From a virus: DNA of 64,000 nt. Position numbers and translations under genes: made by a program. Below are positions 1,146 through 24,733 of this stretch, piece by piece. Location: the IMG/VR virus record IMGVR_UViG_3300032174_000002, positions 21,091 through 85,090 of that record, one strand, 5' to 3'. The notes below the pieces were generated by a model, which was given only the letters and a program-made list of their open reading frames with translations, did no database searches and was not told the origin of the DNA. Each line of letters opens with the position of its first letter. The first letter of the stretch is position 1.

Positions 1146-2630
1146 CTACCCTCCCTGCGCCGCTCTCGGCGCTGCTCGGCCGAAGCTGTAGTGCCTCGAC
1201 GCCTTGGGGCTCAGCCCGGCAAGCTCGAACATCAGCCACGTAGCAGCATCTAAACGATTGGGGCTCGCCTCGCCGCGCTTGCCGGTGTACGACAGCATCT
1301 CATCTTCCAGCTTTCGGAGATGGTCGTAGGTGTAGAGCCGCTTCTTCGGGTCCCACTTCGCGACGTGGTGGACGCGCCCCTGCTCGTAGAGGGCAGACAC
1401 CGGCTCGGCCCGCGCCATCTTGTTGACCGCGGCGTGGACCTTGCGGACGGGGAGGTTGATGTTCGCGCCGCGGAGCGTCGACTCCACCAGGTCGCCGCCG
1501 TTGTTCACCTCGGCCACCAGGCGGTCGCCAGCGATCTCCGCCATCAGCGCCGCGGCCGAGCTCGCCCAGGCCTCGGCCGGCATCACGCCGGACCAGTCGT
1601 CGGTGATGTAGAAGTGGGGCGGCGCCGGCTTGGCGGGAGGGGCCACGGCCCGCGCCAGACCTCGCTTGCCGGCCACGATGCCGCACTCGTCCGACGCCGA
1701 CGTCGCCGTCACCGACGGGTCCAGCCCAACCACCACCCGGTCGATCTCCTCCTCCCACCACTCGCCGTCCTCGCCCGCCGGCGCCTTCACCCGGTGAGCC
1801 GGCACTCGCTCGACTCGGTGGTCGTTGATCATGCCCCAGGTCCAGAGAGCGCCCGGCACGTCCTCGAGGATCTCGGCGGCCAACTCCTGGCGCCCCAGGC
1901 GCGTGCCTTCCATCGGTGCCACGACCTCCTCGATAAACTCGGCCGCCAGGTTGGCCTCGTTCTCCCTGGTATGGCCGCGGGTCACGATCGTGCTGGCCTT
2001 GGCCATCAACTCGCGAAGCAGCTTGATCGGCTTCGGGGTGGTGGTGATGAGGATCTGCGGCTGGCCCTTGCGGCACATCAGGAGCAGGTTCGACCAGACC
2101 TCTTCGAGGCGCTTGTAGGCGGCGAGCTCGTCCGCCCAGAAGCCGTCGAGGTTGGGGCCGCGGAAGCGGTCCGGTTCGTCGGCGGAGAACAGGTGGGCCT
2201 TCGCCCCGTTGTCCCAGGTGATCGTTCGCTTTGTGGGCTCGTAGCGGGGTCGGAAGGCCGGGTCCGAGCAGGCAAGGATGCCGGTCGGTCCCTCGACCAC
2301 GACGCCGCGGAGGTCACCCGCCGTCGGAGCCGACACCCCGAAGCGCTTCCACTCTCCCGCCTCCACCTTGTCGAGGACGGCGTTTGACCCGACTTTCGTC
2401 TTTCCCCAGCCGCGCCCGGCCAGCCACATGAGGATGAAGAACCCGCACGCCGGCAGGAACTGCCCGTTGCTCCGCTCGTCCCGGTCGAGCGTCGGGTTCC
2501 GCGGTCGTCCGGCCCCCTCCTGGCCCACCGCATGCCAGCGCTTCCGCCTCTCGGTGTCGAGAGGAGCGTTCCTGAGCATGAAGAGGCGCCAGAACTCCTG
2601 GCGGAGGGGGATGGGGGAGAGGGCGGGCAT
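1146..2630 (-). CDS. terL: Terminase large subunit (packaging ATPase and nuclease)
   Basis: 494 aa with the start chosen at 2630. It pumps phage DNA into the prohead and cuts it. Walker A AGRGWGKT is at residues 71-78 and Walker B FWADE at 164-168. The ATPase coupling segment TTTPKP is near 196. The RNase-H-like nuclease domain shows Asp304 in VGLDPS, Glu374/Asp380 in AEVNNGGD and Asp461 in NRLDAATW, the expected acidic set. The frame is open up to 2723, but those extra residues are Arg/Pro-rich and overlap a separate coupled ORF (2639-2779), so the MPALSP start is preferred. Length and motif order fit the DNA-packaging family of siphoviruses. Confidence 0.95.
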   Translation of the reverse strand: MPALSPIPLRQEFWRLFMLRNAPLDTERRKRWHAVGQEGAGRPRNPTLDRDERSNGQFLPACGFFILMWLAGRGWGKTKVGSNAVLDKVEAGEWKRFGVSAPTAGDLRGVVVEGPTGILACSDPAFRPRYEPTKRTITWDNGAKAHLFSADEPDRFRGPNLDGFWADELAAYKRLEEVWSNLLLMCRKGQPQILITTTPKPIKLLRELMAKASTIVTRGHTRENEANLAAEFIEEVVAPMEGTRLGRQELAAEILEDVPGALWTWGMINDHRVERVPAHRVKAPAGEDGEWWEEEIDRVVVGLDPSVTATSASDECGIVAGKRGLARAVAPPAKPAPPHFYITDDWSGVMPAEAWASSAAALMAEIAGDRLVAEVNNGGDLVESTLRGANINLPVRKVHAAVNKMARAEPVSALYEQGRVHHVAKWDPKKRLYTYDHLRKLEDEMLSYTGKRGEASPNRLDAATWLMFELAGLSPKASRHYSFGRAAPRAAQGG

Positions 2631-2638
2631 GGAACCAG

Positions 2639-2779
2639 CTAGCCGTGATCGATGGCGACCACGAAGCGGCGAGGGTCGAGCCCGCGGCACCGATTCGAGA
2701 GGGTGGCGAACTCGGGCGGCCAAGACCGCACCTCGTCCCTGTCCACGAACCAGTCGGTCACCTCGCGCGTGGTCGCCAT
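2639..2779 (-). CDS. Small coupled ORF between the terminase genes
   Basis: 46 aa (begins MATTREVTDWFVDRDEV). Its ATG overlaps the stop of the putative small-terminase gene (TGATG). Its TAG lies 8 nt before the preferred terL start. Coupling on both sides and a plausible composition argue that it is translated. It also explains why the upstream extension of terL looks like out-of-frame sequence. Function unknown. Confidence 0.6.
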   Translation of the reverse strand: MATTREVTDWFVDRDEVRSWPPEFATLSNRCRGLDPRRFVVAIDHG

Positions 2780-5104: not shown

Positions 5105-5329
5105 TCACACCCGCCTCTCCCTCACCGTCAATCCCCTGCGTTCCGCCACTCGGTGCGGGTGCGCTCCCACCGGCAGGTCCGCCCCGTTGTACTCCCAGGC
5201 GGCCAGCACCTCGCGGCGCCGGGAGCCGGTCAGGAAGCGGGGGTGCCAGTCGAGCGCCTCCCGCTCTTCCATCTCGTGGTGCGGCCGTAGGGCCGCGATC
5301 AGCATCAGCTTGGTCGGGATGGGTATCAT
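5105..5329 (-). CDS. Hypothetical 74-aa protein
   Basis: The start at 5329 overlaps the upstream stop (TGATG), giving MIPIPTKLMLIAALRPHHEM. It has a basic middle and C-terminus (GSRRREVLAAWEYNG). Not recognised. It is the downstream member of the QueC/DpdA transcription unit. Confidence 0.55.
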   Translation of the reverse strand: MIPIPTKLMLIAALRPHHEMEEREALDWHPRFLTGSRRREVLAAWEYNGADLPVGAHPHRVAERRGLTVRERRV

Positions 5330-5523
5330 CACACCCCTTTGGCGAGCGGCCGCTGCGGGAGAGACTGCCACCGGGCCGCGTGCTGGACCGGCTGGCCGCT
5401 GGTGGGCGCGGTCAGCTGGATCGGGATCTTGCCGGCCTGCTGGCCGCCCACCAGGCAGGGATGGCCGCGGGTGGCTCCGCAGTGCGGGCAGGGGACGGAG
5501 AGGGCGGCGGCGGGGTCGGTCAT
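5329..5523 (-). CDS. Small zinc-finger-like protein
   Basis: 64 aa; the start at 5523 overlaps the queC stop (ATGA). CPHCGATRGHPC near residues 11-22 followed by HAARW gives a CxxC...C...H pattern. This resembles short phage zinc-binding proteins that begin CPxCxAxxGxPC. It directly follows queC, so a link to the modification pathway is conceivable but unproven. Confidence 0.65.
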   Translation of the reverse strand: MTDPAAALSVPCPHCGATRGHPCLVGGQQAGKIPIQLTAPTSGQPVQHAARWQSLPQRPLAKGV

Positions 5524-6092
5524 CGGTCCTGCCTGCACGAGTCGCACTCTCCGCACTGCGTACCGTCCTGGCGCGGCTCGTAGCAAGACCAGGTGTCGGC
5601 GATCACCACCTGAAGTGCGACCGCGAGCGCGCGGACTTCGGAGCGCAGCATACCAACGAGCGGCGCGCGGACGACAACGCCGCCGTCGAGCGCGAGGACG
5701 ACCGAGAGAGCCGCCGCGAATTCCGGCCGGCAGTCAGGATAGCTCGCCTGGTCCGCGCCACTGGCGCCATACCAGACCTCCCGGGCTCCGATCTCCGGTG
5801 CCGAACTGGCCGCCAGCGCAATCAGGATCAGGTTCCGGCAGGGGATGACTCGCGGCCCGGAGGCGCCGACGCCATTCGCCAGGGCCGCCGCGGCCGGGAA
5901 TGCGGCTCGCAGTTCGACTAGGCGGCTACCATTCCTGCCGCACCAGCGCTGGGCAGCTTCGCGCTCCTGTTCCACCGCCGGCTGGCCGTAGTCCACAAAC
6001 GCCGCGGCGGCCAGGCGACCGGCTCGCGCCGCGATCGTCGCCAGCACTGTCGAGTCCAGGCCACCGGAGAACAGGACCGCCACGTCCTTCAT
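5520..6092 (-). CDS. queC: 7-cyano-7-deazaguanine (preQ0) synthase QueC
   Basis: 190 aa. QueC converts 7-carboxy-7-deazaguanine to preQ0 using ATP and ammonia. The PP-loop SGGLDST is at residues 9-15, the family motif GADQASYPDCRPEF is in the middle, and the C-terminal zinc site has Cys170, 180, 183 and 186 (CGECDSC). It is slightly shorter than cellular QueC (about 220-230 aa) but keeps every signature. The start overlaps the stop of the DpdA-like gene (ATGA), so the two are co-translated. In phages this enzyme supplies a modified base for DNA. Confidence 0.93.
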   Translation of the reverse strand: MKDVAVLFSGGLDSTVLATIAARAGRLAAAAFVDYGQPAVEQEREAAQRWCGRNGSRLVELRAAFPAAAALANGVGASGPRVIPCRNLILIALAASSAPEIGAREVWYGASGADQASYPDCRPEFAAALSVVLALDGGVVVRAPLVGMLRSEVRALAVALQVVIADTWSCYEPRQDGTQCGECDSCRQDR

Positions 6093-6709
6093 GGTGCGCC
6101 TCGGTAGTTGATGACCTTCTGGTGGCGGGCACCGTCGAGCAATCCGATCGTGCTGGCGAACCGCGTCACGCTGGTGCCGTCGAAGGAGTCAGCCCCGGCG
6201 AGTTGGCACAGCCAGATGCGCCGAGCCGTGTTCACGCGCCCGACGTGGAGATGGCAGCCGCGTTTCCGCGCCAGGTCGCCCCAGGCCGGAAGCGTGCGCT
6301 CCTTCCATCCGGTGTCACCCCCGACGAAGATGCCGACGTTCGCCGAGAGGAGCGGCGCCACGTCCTGCGGCTCCATCCCGTTCTGCACCGGGACGAGCCG
6401 CCTGCCTCCGAAACGTTCGAGGCGCGGCAGCCACGACTCGGACAGCCGCAGCGAAGTGAGGCCGCCGCATACGATGTCGGGCGCCACCACGAAATCCGCC
6501 CCGGCACCGAGCAGGTCGAGCGCTCGCGAGAAGGCTCCGGCGTCGAACGGTTCGCCGCGCTGGAAGGCGGTCCAGGCCCCGTTGTCGAGGGCGTACCTCG
6601 CGAAGCCCTCCGTTCGTAGCGCACCGGTCGCCGACACCATCAGGCCCCAGCCGCACTCGCGGAGCACCGCGAGATTCCTGGCTGTGCCGGTGCGGGAGGC
6701 GTAGGGCAT
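6089..6709 (-). CDS. dpdA: DpdA-like DNA-guanine transglycosylase
   Basis: 206 aa, start at ATG 6709 with AGGTGG SD. The order of motifs is that of the tRNA-guanine-transglycosylase TIM barrel as seen in phage DpdA proteins: LDNGAW (41-46), APDIV (76-80), PVQNG (107-111), GIFVGG (126-131), HVGRVNT (155-161) and GADSFDGTS (172-180). Known DpdA enzymes exchange guanine in DNA for preQ0 or derivatives. Asp42 and Asp78 are candidate catalytic residues. It overlaps queC, which would make its substrate. FolE, QueD and QueE are not in the window and may be supplied by the host or lie outside. Confidence 0.78.
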   Translation of the reverse strand: MPYASRTGTARNLAVLRECGWGLMVSATGALRTEGFARYALDNGAWTAFQRGEPFDAGAFSRALDLLGAGADFVVAPDIVCGGLTSLRLSESWLPRLERFGGRRLVPVQNGMEPQDVAPLLSANVGIFVGGDTGWKERTLPAWGDLARKRGCHLHVGRVNTARRIWLCQLAGADSFDGTSVTRFASTIGLLDGARHQKVINYRGAP

Positions 6710-6718
6710 GAGCGCCAC

Positions 6719-7198
6719 CTACTCGCCCCCTTCCGGCGGCGGCAGCTTCATCTTCCCGAGCAGCCGCCCGGCCTTGGCGAACGCCACCCGCAGCCGATCG
6801 AGGTCCTCGGCCTGGTCGGCTTCGTAGGCTTCCCGGAGGAGCAGCAGCCCGTCCACCGCGACGGCTACGATCTCGTCCGGGGAGGGGAGGGGAGGTTCGA
6901 GGCCGAGCAGCTCGGCCAGAGCGGTCACAGCGCCGGCGGCGTCTCGCCAAGCAGGGATGCGCTCGTGGGCAGCGGCTAGAATCTCCCCGACCGGGCAACC
7001 GCTCCACTGCGCACCCTTGACACTCAGGAGCGCGCCGATCTGGTACACGATGTCGCCGGAGAGCTTCCCCGCGATCTGCGCTTTCTCCATCTCCTCGCGC
7101 GATTCCTCCCAGGCCCATCGGGCGACATCGCGGGCCTCTGCGCCGACCCGCTTTGCATCCTCGCCAGCGCTCGTGACCCACCACTCATCGAAGGTCAT
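6719..7198 (-). CDS. Hypothetical protein in the queC/dpdA unit
   Basis: 159 aa, start at 7198 by ATGA overlap. Begins MTFDEWWVTSAGEDAKRVGAE and is almost entirely helical and acidic. The MTFDEWW opening is common in small phage proteins of unknown role. It lies 9 nt before dpdA. Confidence 0.6.
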   Translation of the reverse strand: MTFDEWWVTSAGEDAKRVGAEARDVARWAWEESREEMEKAQIAGKLSGDIVYQIGALLSVKGAQWSGCPVGEILAAAHERIPAWRDAAGAVTALAELLGLEPPLPSPDEIVAVAVDGLLLLREAYEADQAEDLDRLRVAFAKAGRLLGKMKLPPPEGGE

Positions 7199-9345: not shown

Positions 9346-9423
9346 TGGTCAGCGCGGGAGGATTTGAACCTCCGACCCCTCGCTCCCAGGGCGAGTGCTC
9401 CGGCCAAGCTGAGCTACGCGCTG
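9346..9423 (-). tRNA. tRNA-Pro (anticodon TGG)
   Basis: All arms fold: acceptor 7 bp (CAGCGCG with CGCGCTG), D stem GCTC/GAGC, anticodon stem CTCGC/GCGAG with loop CCTGGGA, T stem GGAGG/CCTCC with TTCAAAT. CCA is encoded. The 7-nt loop places TGG at 34-36 but with C instead of the near-universal T at position 33. Confidence 0.85.
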
Positions 9424-9708: not shown

Positions 9709-9786
9709 TGGTTGCGCGGGCCCGAGTCGAACGGGCGACCTGTAGGTTATGAGCCTACCGAGCTTCCACGGCTGCTCCACCGCGCA
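9709..9786 (-). tRNA. tRNA-Met (CAT), initiator-like
   Basis: Folds fully: acceptor TGCGCGG/CCGCGCA, D stem GAGC-type with A11:T24, anticodon stem GTAGG/CCTAC with loop CTCATAA, T stem CCCG-rich, encoded CCA. Its body (TGGAGCAGCC...AGCTCG, AGGTCG) closely follows bacterial initiator tRNA. The R11:Y24 pair is the initiator hallmark. However 1-72 is a T-A pair rather than a mismatch, and the anticodon stem has only two of the three G-C pairs. Confidence 0.85.
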
Positions 9787-19950: not shown

Positions 19951-20176
19951 CGGCGCTCCCTCCTGGCGCTCGGCGGCCGAGAGCGGCTGCGCAGGCCCGG
20001 CACTTGAAGCTCTCCTGGACCGCCTTGTACATCGGCGGCGAGAGGTTCGACGACTCCCAGCCGCGGCAGAGCGAGACGCGGAAGCCGTCGCGGTCCACGC
20101 CGACCGGGAGGAAGTGCGCCTTGCGGGCGCCGCGCGGCCACCACCAGCCCTCGGAGAAGGCGTCGGGCTCCTTCAC
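19940..20176 (-). CDS. Hypothetical 78-aa protein
   Basis: GTG start overlapping the methyltransferase stop (GTGA). Contains SEGWWWPRG and a final CRACAAALGRRAPGG. Not recognised. Overlaps the next gene by 11 nt. Confidence 0.5.
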   Translation of the reverse strand: MKEPDAFSEGWWWPRGARKAHFLPVGVDRDGFRVSLCRGWESSNLSPPMYKAVQESFKCRACAAALGRRAPGGSADGQ

Positions 20177-20973
20177 TCGCCCTCCTCTCCGTGGACGGCC
20201 AGGGTTGGCGTGCGGGTGGTCTCGTCCCAGCCGCGCTCAAAGGTGGTCCCGCGGGCGCCGGCGAGGGGGAGCGCCGCCTGCCGCGTCTCCTCGATCACCC
20301 GCTGGCGCACGCCGTTGACGAAGTCGGGATCTCGATCGAAGCCAATGAAGAGCCGATCGCAGCGGATAGCCGCGATCGCCGTTGATCCTCCACCCATGAA
20401 GGGATCGAGCACGAGACCGCCGCGCGGCGACACGAGCCGCACGGCACGCTCCATCAGGTCGACAGGCTTCTCGGCTGGATGGTCTGTCAGCGTCGACGCG
20501 TTCCCTCCACCCCAGGCGCAGCGCCACAGATCCGGCTCGGAGGCGCTCGCCGCCTGGAAGTCGTTGAGTTGAAGAACCGTGAAGGTTTCGTAGCTCCTGC
20601 TTAAGACACCGCCGAGTCCCATGCGCTCCTTGTCCCAGACGCCGATCGCTGGCGCGCGTCGGATGCCGAGCTTCGCCGCAGCCTGGTCGAGTTCGAGGCA
20701 GCCGCGCCAGTCGAGCGTCATCCAAACCGCCCCATCAGGCCGGAGGACGCGCAGCCACTCCCGCAGATGCTCGCGCAGCCACGCCGCGAAGAACTGCGTC
20801 TCCTTGATCGAGCGCACGGTGCGGGAATTGGCGATCGACGACTCGCCGGCGATGGCGTAGGGCGGATCGGTCACAACCGCATGGACGGAGCCGGGCGACA
20901 ACTCGGAAACAAGCTCGAGCGCCTCACCCAGGAACAACTGGACGCCGGGCTGCTCGTGGTAGAGCCGCGCCAT
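20173..20973 (-). CDS. DNA methyltransferase (N6-adenine or N4-cytosine, beta type)
   Basis: 266 aa, start at 20973 (TGATG). The catalytic motif TDPPYA is at 35-40, then HPAEKP at 165-170 and the SAM-binding motif DPFMGGGST at 190-198. This DPPY-before-FxGxG order defines beta-class amino-methyltransferases. No partner restriction nuclease is adjacent, so it is probably an orphan enzyme that protects phage DNA or regulates genes. The target site cannot be read from sequence. Confidence 0.92.
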   Translation of the reverse strand: MARLYHEQPGVQLFLGEALELVSELSPGSVHAVVTDPPYAIAGESSIANSRTVRSIKETQFFAAWLREHLREWLRVLRPDGAVWMTLDWRGCLELDQAAAKLGIRRAPAIGVWDKERMGLGGVLSRSYETFTVLQLNDFQAASASEPDLWRCAWGGGNASTLTDHPAEKPVDLMERAVRLVSPRGGLVLDPFMGGGSTAIAAIRCDRLFIGFDRDPDFVNGVRQRVIEETRQAALPLAGARGTTFERGWDETTRTPTLAVHGEEGE

Positions 20974-21713
20974 CAGAACAAAGTCCCCGACCGCCGCGCC
21001 GCCGGCTTCACCACCTTCGGAGCCGCCCAGCCAGGTCGCCCCGTCGCCGGCGCCAGCCCCAGCTCGATCAGTGCCGCCAGGCCGATAAACGCCGCGTCGG
21101 AGGCGTCGTAGCCAGGGAAGCTGTGCACGGCCCCCCAGCGAGCCCGAGCCGCGGCCAGCACCTCCTCCTTGCCGGTTCCCGATCCGCCGCCCTTCCCGAG
21201 CGCGGCCATCTTCACGGAGGCGATCGGCTGGGACTTGACCTCCAGTTGGTTCTCGGCGCACCAGGCGAGCAGGATGCCCTCGGCGGCGCCGTAGGCATGC
21301 GCCGCTGCGATATTGGTCGGCCGCGGCTTGTGGATGGTCGCTGCGACACCGGCGATGTCGTCGAGGACCGCCTCGATCGCGGCTCGGTCACCGGGCGGCA
21401 GCGTCCGGGAGCGCTTGTATCCTTCACGGGCCAACCGCAGGATGCGCTCCGCCGCGGTGGTCGGCTCGTCAGCTGCGGGGCTCATGTGCGCTCGGACTTC
21501 CTCGTAGGCGCAGAGGTCAGGGCGCCCAGATGCCAGCGCCTCGTCGAGCTTCTGGCGGAGCCTGATCCAGCGGACGCCCGGCGATTCCTTCCGGTTCCGG
21601 TCCGCGATCGACCACGTTCCAACGCCGGTAAGGTCGGCGCCGCCGCCCGGGCGAGCCAAGAGTCTGGCCCAGCCGACGAAGGAGCCGCCGAGATCCAACG
21701 CCAGGATCTTCAT
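20973..21713 (-). CDS. ruvC: RuvC-like Holliday junction resolvase
   Basis: 246 aa, start at 21713 (ATGA). LALDLGGSFVGWA places the first catalytic Asp at residue 7. CAYEEV supplies the Glu. C-terminal GYDASDAAFIGLAAL supplies the Asp pair. It resolves four-way junctions formed in replication and packaging. A 40-residue insertion (about 85-125) lengthens it relative to bacterial RuvC, as in other phage RuvC-like proteins. Neighbours are the methyltransferase and the recombination genes. Confidence 0.82.
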   Translation of the reverse strand: MKILALDLGGSFVGWARLLARPGGGADLTGVGTWSIADRNRKESPGVRWIRLRQKLDEALASGRPDLCAYEEVRAHMSPAADEPTTAAERILRLAREGYKRSRTLPPGDRAAIEAVLDDIAGVAATIHKPRPTNIAAAHAYGAAEGILLAWCAENQLEVKSQPIASVKMAALGKGGGSGTGKEEVLAAARARWGAVHSFPGYDASDAAFIGLAALIELGLAPATGRPGWAAPKVVKPAARRSGTLF

Positions 21714-23980: not shown

Positions 23981-24733
23981 TTATGCGCGTTCCAGATAGG
24001 CGTTGCTTACGACCTTCAGGCACACTCGGCCGACTTCCGGCGCGGCCCGTTCCGTCATCGGCTTGACCACGATGCCCTCGCGGAGATGATTCGCGCCCGG
24101 AACCTTCGAGGGTCCCTCGGCCAACGCCAGGATGGCTTCCAGATCAAATGGCGCGCCGCTGGCGATCGTAGGCACCCACGGGAGCGCTGGCGCGAGGTCG
24201 CGGGCCTCCTGCGCGTTGATCCATTCGCTGCCGCTCAGCAGATCGAAGACGGCGATGCAAGCCTCGCCCGGCTTGGAGCCGTACTTGAGATCCTGGACCT
24301 GGCCGTAGACCTCGCAATAAACCGCGATCTCGGGATGATCGATGAGGAACCGCTTGACCTCGGCGCCGCCGGCCGTGGTGACCAGCGCCTTCCACCAGAG
24401 ATTGCCCTCGTTGTAGCGCTTCCATTCAGTGCGGCTGCCGGCGTGGAAGTTCTCGCCGTCGAAGACGTACCGGCCATTGGCGCCGTGAATCTTCTCGGTC
24501 ACATAGACCAGCTCGCCAGGCTCGAAGACGGCAGCGTAGCGGCGCAGGCTCTCCACGTCGAATTCGGGGACGATCGAATCGGGCGGAATGTAGGCGCCGA
24601 TCGCCCGGCCCGACCAGTCCTCGGTGCGGACGCAGCAAGTGTAGCCGCTGAACACCTTGACCACGCTCAGCGTGTCAGCGTTGGGGTGGGGCAGCAACTC
24701 GATCGGCACCACTTCGACCCGGTGATCGCTCAT
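23981..24733 (-). CDS. RNA ligase (Rnl5/NgrRnl-like)
   Basis: 250 aa. An N-terminal beta-rich domain (1-55, VEVVPIELLPHPNADTLSVV) precedes the nucleotidyltransferase core. Motif I is EKIHGANG with Lys81 as the AMP-accepting residue. EVYG is at 141-144, EGIVVK at 219-224 and LKVVS at 239-243. The N-terminal domain plus KxHG ligase core resembles the Naegleria-type Rnl5 group. It seals 3'-OH/5'-phosphate RNA nicks, plausibly repairing tRNAs cut by host defences; the phage carries its own tRNAs. Confidence 0.82.
   Translation of the reverse strand: MSDHRVEVVPIELLPHPNADTLSVVKVFSGYTCCVRTEDWSGRAIGAYIPPDSIVPEFDVESLRRYAAVFEPGELVYVTEKIHGANGRYVFDGENFHAGSRTEWKRYNEGNLWWKALVTTAGGAEVKRFLIDHPEIAVYCEVYGQVQDLKYGSKPGEACIAVFDLLSGSEWINAQEARDLAPALPWVPTIASGAPFDLEAILALAEGPSKVPGANHLREGIVVKPMTERAAPEVGRVCLKVVSNAYLERA

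What the first reader, a model, noticed from the sequence alone, without database searches (positions are those of the whole stretch)
5520..6709. Co-translated QueC and DpdA-like pair: likely 7-deazaguanine hypermodification of phage DNA
QueC with all signatures overlaps a 206-aa TGT-fold DpdA-like gene by 4 nt. This indicates preQ0 is made and inserted into phage DNA. The DpdA is short, and FolE/QueD/QueE are missing from the window, so the phage may rely on host CDG synthesis. The coupled zinc protein (5329-5523) and the 159-aa protein (6719-7198) in the same unit are candidates for new accessory factors.
Basis: partly seen in the sequence, partly recalled or inferred. Interest (0 to 1): 0.85.

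Follow-up and report, generated by a model that had tools for sequence, protein, structure and literature searches.

The report
Compact DpdA-like enzyme paired with QueC
This phage carries a very small relative of the enzymes that swap guanine for a 7-deazaguanine in DNA, co-translated with a single gene (QueC) for making that base; the same small enzyme, often with just one pathway gene beside it, recurs in many unrelated phages and occurs alone on plasmids, which suggests a widespread and untested DNA-protection strategy.

Summary
Window 5520-6092(-) encodes an intact QueC. It overlaps by ATGA a 206-aa protein (6089-6709) that is a (beta/alpha)8 barrel, homologous to phage DpdA1 (profile-profile E 7e-8) and keeping the aligned TGT/DpdA acidic residues (D42, D78, D177). 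It is not a truncated DpdA. It is a full-length member of a compact family (phrog_15826, 'unknown function', no Pfam model), called sDpdA here.

No FolE, QueD, QueE, QueF or DpdA1 was found in the 85-kb record. The pattern is general: in 41 of 89 viral loci sDpdA has an adjacent co-directional preQ0 gene, in 36 of them exactly one (QueC 24, QueD 8, QueE 3, FolE 1). The window's nearest sDpdA relatives carry QueD in the slot where the window has QueC. DNA methyltransferases are frequent neighbours. Relatives without que genes sit on Pseudomonas and Burkholderiaceae plasmids and beside conjugation genes in sphingomonads.

Best reading: sDpdA inserts preQ0 into phage DNA, and the single que gene tops up host synthesis. 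Activity is unproven. Awkward facts: some phages carry both sDpdA and DpdA1, and a mycobacteriophage carries sDpdA although its host lacks the pathway. The proposed accessory proteins are not supported.

The parts
6089..6709 (-). sDpdA: compact DpdA-like guanine transglycosylase homologue, 206 aa, start ATG 6709
   Evidence: phrog_15826 8.7e-43; AF2 pLDDT 90.9, 8-stranded barrel; profile match to DpdA1 E 7.2e-8; best functional fold hits are viral DpdA
5520..6092 (-). QueC, 7-cyano-7-deazaguanine (preQ0) synthase, 190 aa
   Evidence: PF06508 4.3e-38; 2pg3/3bl5; motifs intact
6089..6092 (-). ATGA overlap: QueC start codon / sDpdA stop codon
   Evidence: sequence
6584..6586 (-). sDpdA D42 (ALDNGA), invariant; aligned with DpdA1 DSGA and, by eye, with the TGT DSGG aspartate
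6476..6478 (-). sDpdA D78 (PDIV), invariant
6383..6385 (-). sDpdA Q109 (VQNG), invariant; His in DpdA1, Gln in TGT
6317..6322 (-). sDpdA G130-G131, invariant
6179..6181 (-). sDpdA D177 (SFDGT), invariant; aligned with DpdA1 VDS aspartate; corresponds by motif to the TGT nucleophile
6051..6068 (-). QueC PP-loop SGGLDS
5535..5585 (-). QueC zinc cysteines C170, C180, C183, C186
5329..5523 (-). 64-aa zinc-finger protein overlapping the QueC end; probably unrelated passenger
   Evidence: PF24623 2.1e-7; not found beside relatives
6719..7198 (-). 159-aa protein of unknown function, 9 nt upstream of sDpdA; no family, no relatives found

Best explanation
sDpdA (6089-6709) is a minimal 7-deazaguanine:guanine transglycosylase. 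It replaces some guanines in replicated phage DNA with preQ0, giving dPreQ0, and protects the DNA from host restriction. The host makes the precursor through FolE, QueD and QueE. The phage's own QueC, translated directly after sDpdA, raises conversion of 7-carboxy-7-deazaguanine to preQ0 during infection. Shown by computation: QueC identity, sDpdA fold and homology to DpdA, conserved catalytic residues, overlapping reading frames, recurrent pairing with usually one preQ0 gene. Inferred: catalytic activity, DNA as the target, preQ0 as the base, protection, host supply.
For: Homology to DpdA1: hhalign prob 94.6, E 7.2e-8. BFVD fold hits are led, after one close homologue, by viral queuine TRT/DpdA proteins, E 5e-7, TM 0.68. 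D42, D78, Q109, GG130-131 and D177 are invariant across 20 divergent members. 41 of 89 viral loci have an adjacent same-strand preQ0 gene: QueC alone 24, QueD alone 8, QueE alone 3, FolE alone 1, two or three genes 5. QueC is found in only 141 of 50,697 phage records. Whole-record searches of 46 of these viruses find practically no QueD, QueE, FolE or DpdA1 beyond those beside sDpdA, except one full-pathway record (L152), one radical-SAM gene of unknown type in the record of L113 and one weak sub-cut-off QueD-like match in the record of L155. Nearest sDpdA relatives L097 and L098 carry QueD in the downstream slot, which argues for a pathway top-up and not for QueC as an obligate partner. que linkage changed at least 12 times on the sDpdA tree. 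DNA methyltransferases are frequent neighbours (23 and 11 loci). Phages with DpdA and no pathway genes can carry 7-deazaguanine in their DNA: 7-11 (PMC6884629) and MED16 (PMC8306585).
Against: No biochemical datum exists for any phrog_15826 member that I could find. Some phages with a full pathway and DpdA1 also carry sDpdA (Sonali, R29Z, phiG7 where it is split, L152), so sDpdA is not simply a replacement. Mycobacteriophage Phegasus has sDpdA and no QueC or QueD, and its host genus lacks the pathway (PMC6884629). Singleton-DpdA phage Orion, which did not turn up in a search with an sDpdA member, had no modification (PMC6884629). More than half of the viral loci have no que gene beside sDpdA. 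Direct profile comparison with E. coli TGT is not significant. PDB fold hits are generic TIM barrels.
Confidence: 0.6

Rival explanations
1. sDpdA inserts a 7-deazaguanine other than preQ0 (for example CDG), or acts on a second target or sequence context. The accompanying que gene only sets which intermediate accumulates, so the modified base differs between phages with QueC, QueD, QueE or FolE.
For: Different single que genes occupy the neighbouring slot; sDpdA coexists with DpdA1 in full-pathway phages, implying a different job. dCDG in phage DNA has been reported (recollection of Cui et al. 2023 NAR; paper not held).
Against: QueC, the last step to preQ0, is by far the commonest partner; hosts with a Q pathway would turn extra CDG into preQ0 anyway.
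Confidence: 0.17
2. The pair acts on tRNA: QueC boosts precursor supply and sDpdA is a phage TGT that modifies tRNA during infection.
For: TGT-type fold; the window encodes two tRNA genes.
Against: sDpdA lacks the zinc-binding C-terminal subdomain of tRNA TGTs; the phage tRNAs are Pro(TGG) and Met(CAT), not GUN-anticodon TGT substrates; recurrent neighbours are DNA methyltransferases and other DNA-processing genes.
Confidence: 0.1
3. QueC only raises host preQ0/queuosine for translation, and the DpdA-like barrel is a diverged enzyme with another nucleic-acid or nucleotide function (for example base removal or anti-restriction); on plasmids it works with DndC-like and Mre11/Rad50-like proteins.
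For: More than half of viral loci and all 58 bacterial loci lack a que gene in the flanks; 26 Burkholderiaceae/Pseudomonas loci have a DndC/PAPS-reductase-like gene near sDpdA.
Against: Adjacency to one of four enzymes of a single pathway in 41 of 89 viral loci is hard to explain without a 7-deazaguanine substrate; TGT/DpdA acidic residues are invariant.
Confidence: 0.13

Closest known systems
Phage DpdA1 (CAjan, Rosebush, Sonali gp87, phiG7 gp16; phrog_887 / phrog_7068)
   Same: TIM barrel, aligned Asp37/73/174 (Sonali numbering), genetic linkage to preQ0 synthesis genes
   Different: sDpdA is 206 aa against 296-376 aa, shares under 20% identity, has Gln where DpdA1 has His in the P-x-x-H motif, falls in another PHROG, and coexists with DpdA1 in some genomes
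Bacterial tRNA-guanine transglycosylase (TGT)
   Same: Order of DSGG/D/Q-G/GG/D motifs resembles DNGA/PD/VQ-G/GG/FDG (by eye)
   Different: No zinc-binding C-terminal subdomain; no significant profile match to E. coli TGT
SEA-PHAGES 'DpdA-like tRNA-guanine transglycosylase' (Sonali gp81, Aoka gp40, Phegasus gp54)
   Same: Same family as the window protein, about 32% identity; members already named DpdA-like by annotators
   Different: Actinobacteriophage branch; Aoka and Phegasus have no QueC or QueD in their genomes
Erythrobacter phage R6L gp10 / ZS04 ('hypothetical protein', 'DarB-like antirestriction protein')
   Same: 53% identical to sDpdA
   Different: No QueC or QueD in the R6L genome
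QueC (E. coli 2pg3, B. subtilis 3bl5)
   Same: PP-loop, substrate and zinc motifs; full-length match
   Different: Short C-terminus (4 aa after the zinc motif); below the TIGR00364 equivalog cut-off (113 against 150 bits)

Membership tests
QueC (7-cyano-7-deazaguanine synthase) | Full-length match to the QueC family over its curated cut-off | tested here: met
   PF06508 131 bits, cut-off 22; but 113 bits on TIGR00364, below its 150-bit equivalog cut-off
QueC (7-cyano-7-deazaguanine synthase) | PP-loop SGGxDS and four zinc cysteines | tested here: met
   SGGLDS; C170, C180, C183, C186
QueC (7-cyano-7-deazaguanine synthase) | Converts CDG to preQ0 | not testable with these tools
   needs complementation or assay
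DpdA/TGT superfamily | (beta/alpha)8 barrel related to DpdA | tested here: met
   AF2 pLDDT 90.9 with eight strands; viral DpdA proteins among the best BFVD hits; hhalign E 7.2e-8. PDB hits generic
DpdA/TGT superfamily | Conserved catalytic aspartates in barrel motifs | tested here: met
   D42, D78, D177 invariant and aligned with DpdA1 D37, D73, D174
DpdA1 subfamily (phrog_887/7068) | Significant match to the subfamily profiles | tested here: not met
   only phrog_15826 matched for P0002; phrog_887 not found in G000 at E <= 0.001
tRNA TGT | C-terminal zinc site CxCxxC...H | tested here: not met
   no such motif; the protein ends 29 residues after D177
Phage with complete preQ0 pathway (Hutinet group 2) | FolE, QueD, QueE and QueC all encoded | tested here: not met
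   only QueC present in the 85-kb record; the record may be incomplete
DpdA2, DpdA3, DpdA4 subfamilies | Sequence clustering with named members | tested here: inconclusive
   an nt-1 464-aa protein and Cellulophaga/Sulfolobales viral proteins appear among fold hits; a phiSM 240-aa protein groups with DpdA1, not sDpdA; reference sequences for these subfamilies were not at hand
7-deazaguanine DNA modification | Deazaguanine nucleoside in virion DNA | not testable with these tools
   needs LC-MS

The most novel reading that the evidence does not exclude
phrog_15826 is an undescribed compact DpdA subfamily spread through phages, plasmids and conjugative elements. It modifies mobile-element DNA using the host's queuosine precursor pool, and phages repeatedly add just one preQ0 enzyme (QueC, QueD, QueE or FolE) to relieve whichever step limits their host.
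Probability: 0.45. Interest if true: 0.75.

Novelty: new variant of a known kind. Interest (0 to 1): 0.58.

Why it matters
Known 7-deazaguanine phages mostly carry either a whole preQ0 pathway with a 300-400-aa DpdA or DpdA alone. Here a 200-aa enzyme is tied to single pathway genes in dozens of viral loci, and close relatives sit as 'hypothetical proteins' on 171 plasmid records, mostly Pseudomonas. If it works as proposed, it gives a function to a PHROG family of unknown function, a minimal enzyme for swapping a DNA base, and a likely anti-restriction factor for plasmids as well as phages. It also makes testable the question of how phages with partial pathways obtain their modified base.

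Tried and rejected
Truncated or decayed DpdA1: rejected; length and conserved core are those of a whole family. QueC as a PP-loop relative such as QatC or Cap9: rejected; QueC scores far higher. Other pathway genes hidden in the 21 kb outside the window: none. Zinc and 159-aa proteins as accessory factors: no conservation beside sDpdA. QueC as an obligate physical partner of sDpdA: unlikely, since QueD, QueE or FolE take its place or nothing does. A viral-contig scan seeded with the window QueC alone found no confirmed relative. HMM and hhalign comparison with a single E. coli TGT sequence: not significant. PDB sequence searches with sDpdA or DpdA1 profiles: nothing. Host of the phage: not determined; portal and capsid proteins have only distant relatives. 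Cui et al. 2023 could not be read, so whether its DpdA3/DpdA4 groups include this family was not checked.

Full report
WHAT IS THERE. The window lies in an 85,090-bp virus record (window = 21091-85090) with a tailed-phage terminase at 1149-2723(-) and portal- and capsid-like proteins in the first 20 kb. On the minus strand the order of translation is a 159-aa protein (6719-7198), then, after 9 nt, a 206-aa protein (6089-6709) with a Shine-Dalgarno-like AGGTGG 5 nt before its ATG, then QueC (5520-6092) through an ATGA overlap, then a 64-aa zinc-finger protein (5329-5523) through another 4-nt overlap. GC3 values mark the two central ORFs as coding.

QueC. P0001 matches Pfam QueC over nearly its whole length (131 bits, cut-off 22) and the solved QueC structures 2pg3 and 3bl5. 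PP-loop, RN, YPDCRPE, SCY and CGxCxxC motifs are intact. It falls below the strict NCBIfam equivalog cut-off, which I attribute to a short divergent phage member. Hutinet et al. (PMC6884629) warn that phage QueC singletons may be other PP-loop ATPases; the intact motifs and the genetic partner speak against that here.

THE DpdA-LIKE PROTEIN. P0002 has no Pfam family; its only strong match is phrog_15826, annotated 'unknown function'. The AlphaFold model (pLDDT 90.9, pTM 0.88) has eight strands in barrel order. PDB fold hits are generic TIM barrels. Against viral structures the best hit is a 499-aa homologue (48% identity); among the next hits are viral 'queuine tRNA-ribosyltransferase'/DpdA proteins from Arthrobacter, Sulfolobales, Microbacterium and Mycobacterium viruses. 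Profile-profile comparison with DpdA1 gives probability 94.6 and E 7.2e-8, aligning D42, D78, Q109 and D177 with DpdA1 D37, D73, H103 and D174. D42, D78, Q109, GG130-131, H155 and D177 are invariant across 20 divergent members. By motif these correspond to the catalytic and substrate-binding residues of bacterial TGT (established knowledge; direct statistical comparison with E. coli TGT failed). The TGT zinc subdomain is absent. I call the family sDpdA.

RELATIVES AND CONTEXT. Two IMG/VR scans and one GTDB scan gave 88 viral and 58 bacterial loci. In 41 of 89 viral loci (window included) a preQ0 gene lies next to sDpdA on the same strand: QueC alone 24, QueD alone 8, QueE alone 3, FolE alone 1, combinations 5. 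The 89 are not independent: several are near-duplicates, such as L116/L118 and L121/L122. For comparison, a search with the window QueC finds QueC in 141 of 50,697 phage records. Searching 46 whole records for QueD, FolE, radical SAM and DpdA1, and 36 records for QueC, found practically only the genes already seen beside sDpdA. The exceptions are L152's record, which has the whole pathway plus DpdA1, one radical-SAM gene in L113's record, and weak sub-cut-off matches (a QueD-like one in L155's record, a QueC-like one in L158's). On the sDpdA tree (quick method, many open forks) que linkage changes at least 12 times, and the window's nearest relatives (L097, L098; up to 67% identity) carry QueD, not QueC, in the overlapping downstream position, on contigs whose flanks share almost no genes with the window. 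Recurrent other neighbours are N6/N4 and C5 DNA methyltransferases (23 and 11 loci). The window has an N6/N4 methyltransferase at 20176-21261(-), 13 kb away.

OUTSIDE PHAGES. sDpdA is on 171 plasmid records, 146 of them Pseudomonas, usually annotated as hypothetical, including pND6-1 and pQBR103. In several sphingomonads it follows VirB8- and TrbI-type conjugation genes. In Caballeronia and Paraburkholderia it lies in a cluster with an Mre11-like phosphatase, a Rad50-like ATPase and a DndC/PAPS-reductase-like protein. None of the 58 bacterial loci has a que gene in its flanks. I infer that these elements would draw preQ0 from the host.

MECHANISM. The simplest account is that sDpdA exchanges guanine for preQ0 in DNA and that the single que gene boosts a limiting step of host preQ0 synthesis. 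Published precedents that host precursor can feed phage DpdA are 7-11 (PMC6884629) and MED16 (PMC8306585). Interchange of QueC, QueD, QueE and FolE in one gene slot fits supply of a pathway product better than a fixed QueC-sDpdA complex. The predominance of QueC points to preQ0. Activity, target and base remain inferred.

WHAT DOES NOT FIT. Sonali, Vibrio phage R29Z, Escherichia phage phiG7 (sDpdA split into two ORFs) and L152 carry DpdA1 and other preQ0-pathway genes as well as sDpdA. So sDpdA has a separate role at least there: another sequence context, another target, or an accessory function. Phegasus has sDpdA without QueC or QueD in a host genus reported to lack the pathway. These keep confidence at about 0.6.

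NOVELTY. DpdA enzymes and 7-deazaguanine phage DNA are known, and annotators already label actinophage members 'DpdA-like'. I found no paper on this compact family or on the one-gene architecture in the library at hand, but the 2023 paper that, as I recall, defined DpdA3 and DpdA4 could not be read. I rate it a new variant of a known kind.

Noticed in passing
L037-L094 (Caballeronia, Paraburkholderia, Pseudomonas genomes); L164: sDpdA with a 50-odd-aa N-terminal extension in a cluster with Mre11-like, Rad50-like and DndC/PAPS-reductase-like genes (a NADAR protein is also near in L164): a possible undescribed DNA modification or defence cassette on plasmids.
   Followed up: partly
L058, L062, L075, L083, L093, L094: sDpdA after VirB/Trb-type conjugation genes in sphingomonads, as if used to protect transferred DNA.
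   Followed up: partly
L036 3887-4533 (Escherichia phage phiG7, also SHIN8): sDpdA homologue split over two overlapping ORFs between the polymerase processivity factor and the DNA polymerase, in a phage that also has DpdA1; Vibrio phage R29Z has it intact in a similar place.
   Followed up: partly
L031 6643-7560; L003 21454-22497; L139, L157, L100: PAPS-reductase-like PP-loop genes close to sDpdA in several phages, a second kind of PP-loop partner besides QueC.
   Followed up: partly
BFVD A0A0F7L9Z1 (uncultured marine virus): 499-aa protein with a region 48% identical to sDpdA (TM 0.92): a possible fusion whose other half could show the partner function.
   Followed up: no
window 9346-9423 and 9709-9786 (-): Two tRNA genes, Pro(TGG) and Met(CAT), a few kb from the sDpdA operon.
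   Followed up: no
window 20176-21261 (-), 23984-24733 (-): N6/N4 DNA methyltransferase and an RNA ligase-family protein in the same record.
   Followed up: no
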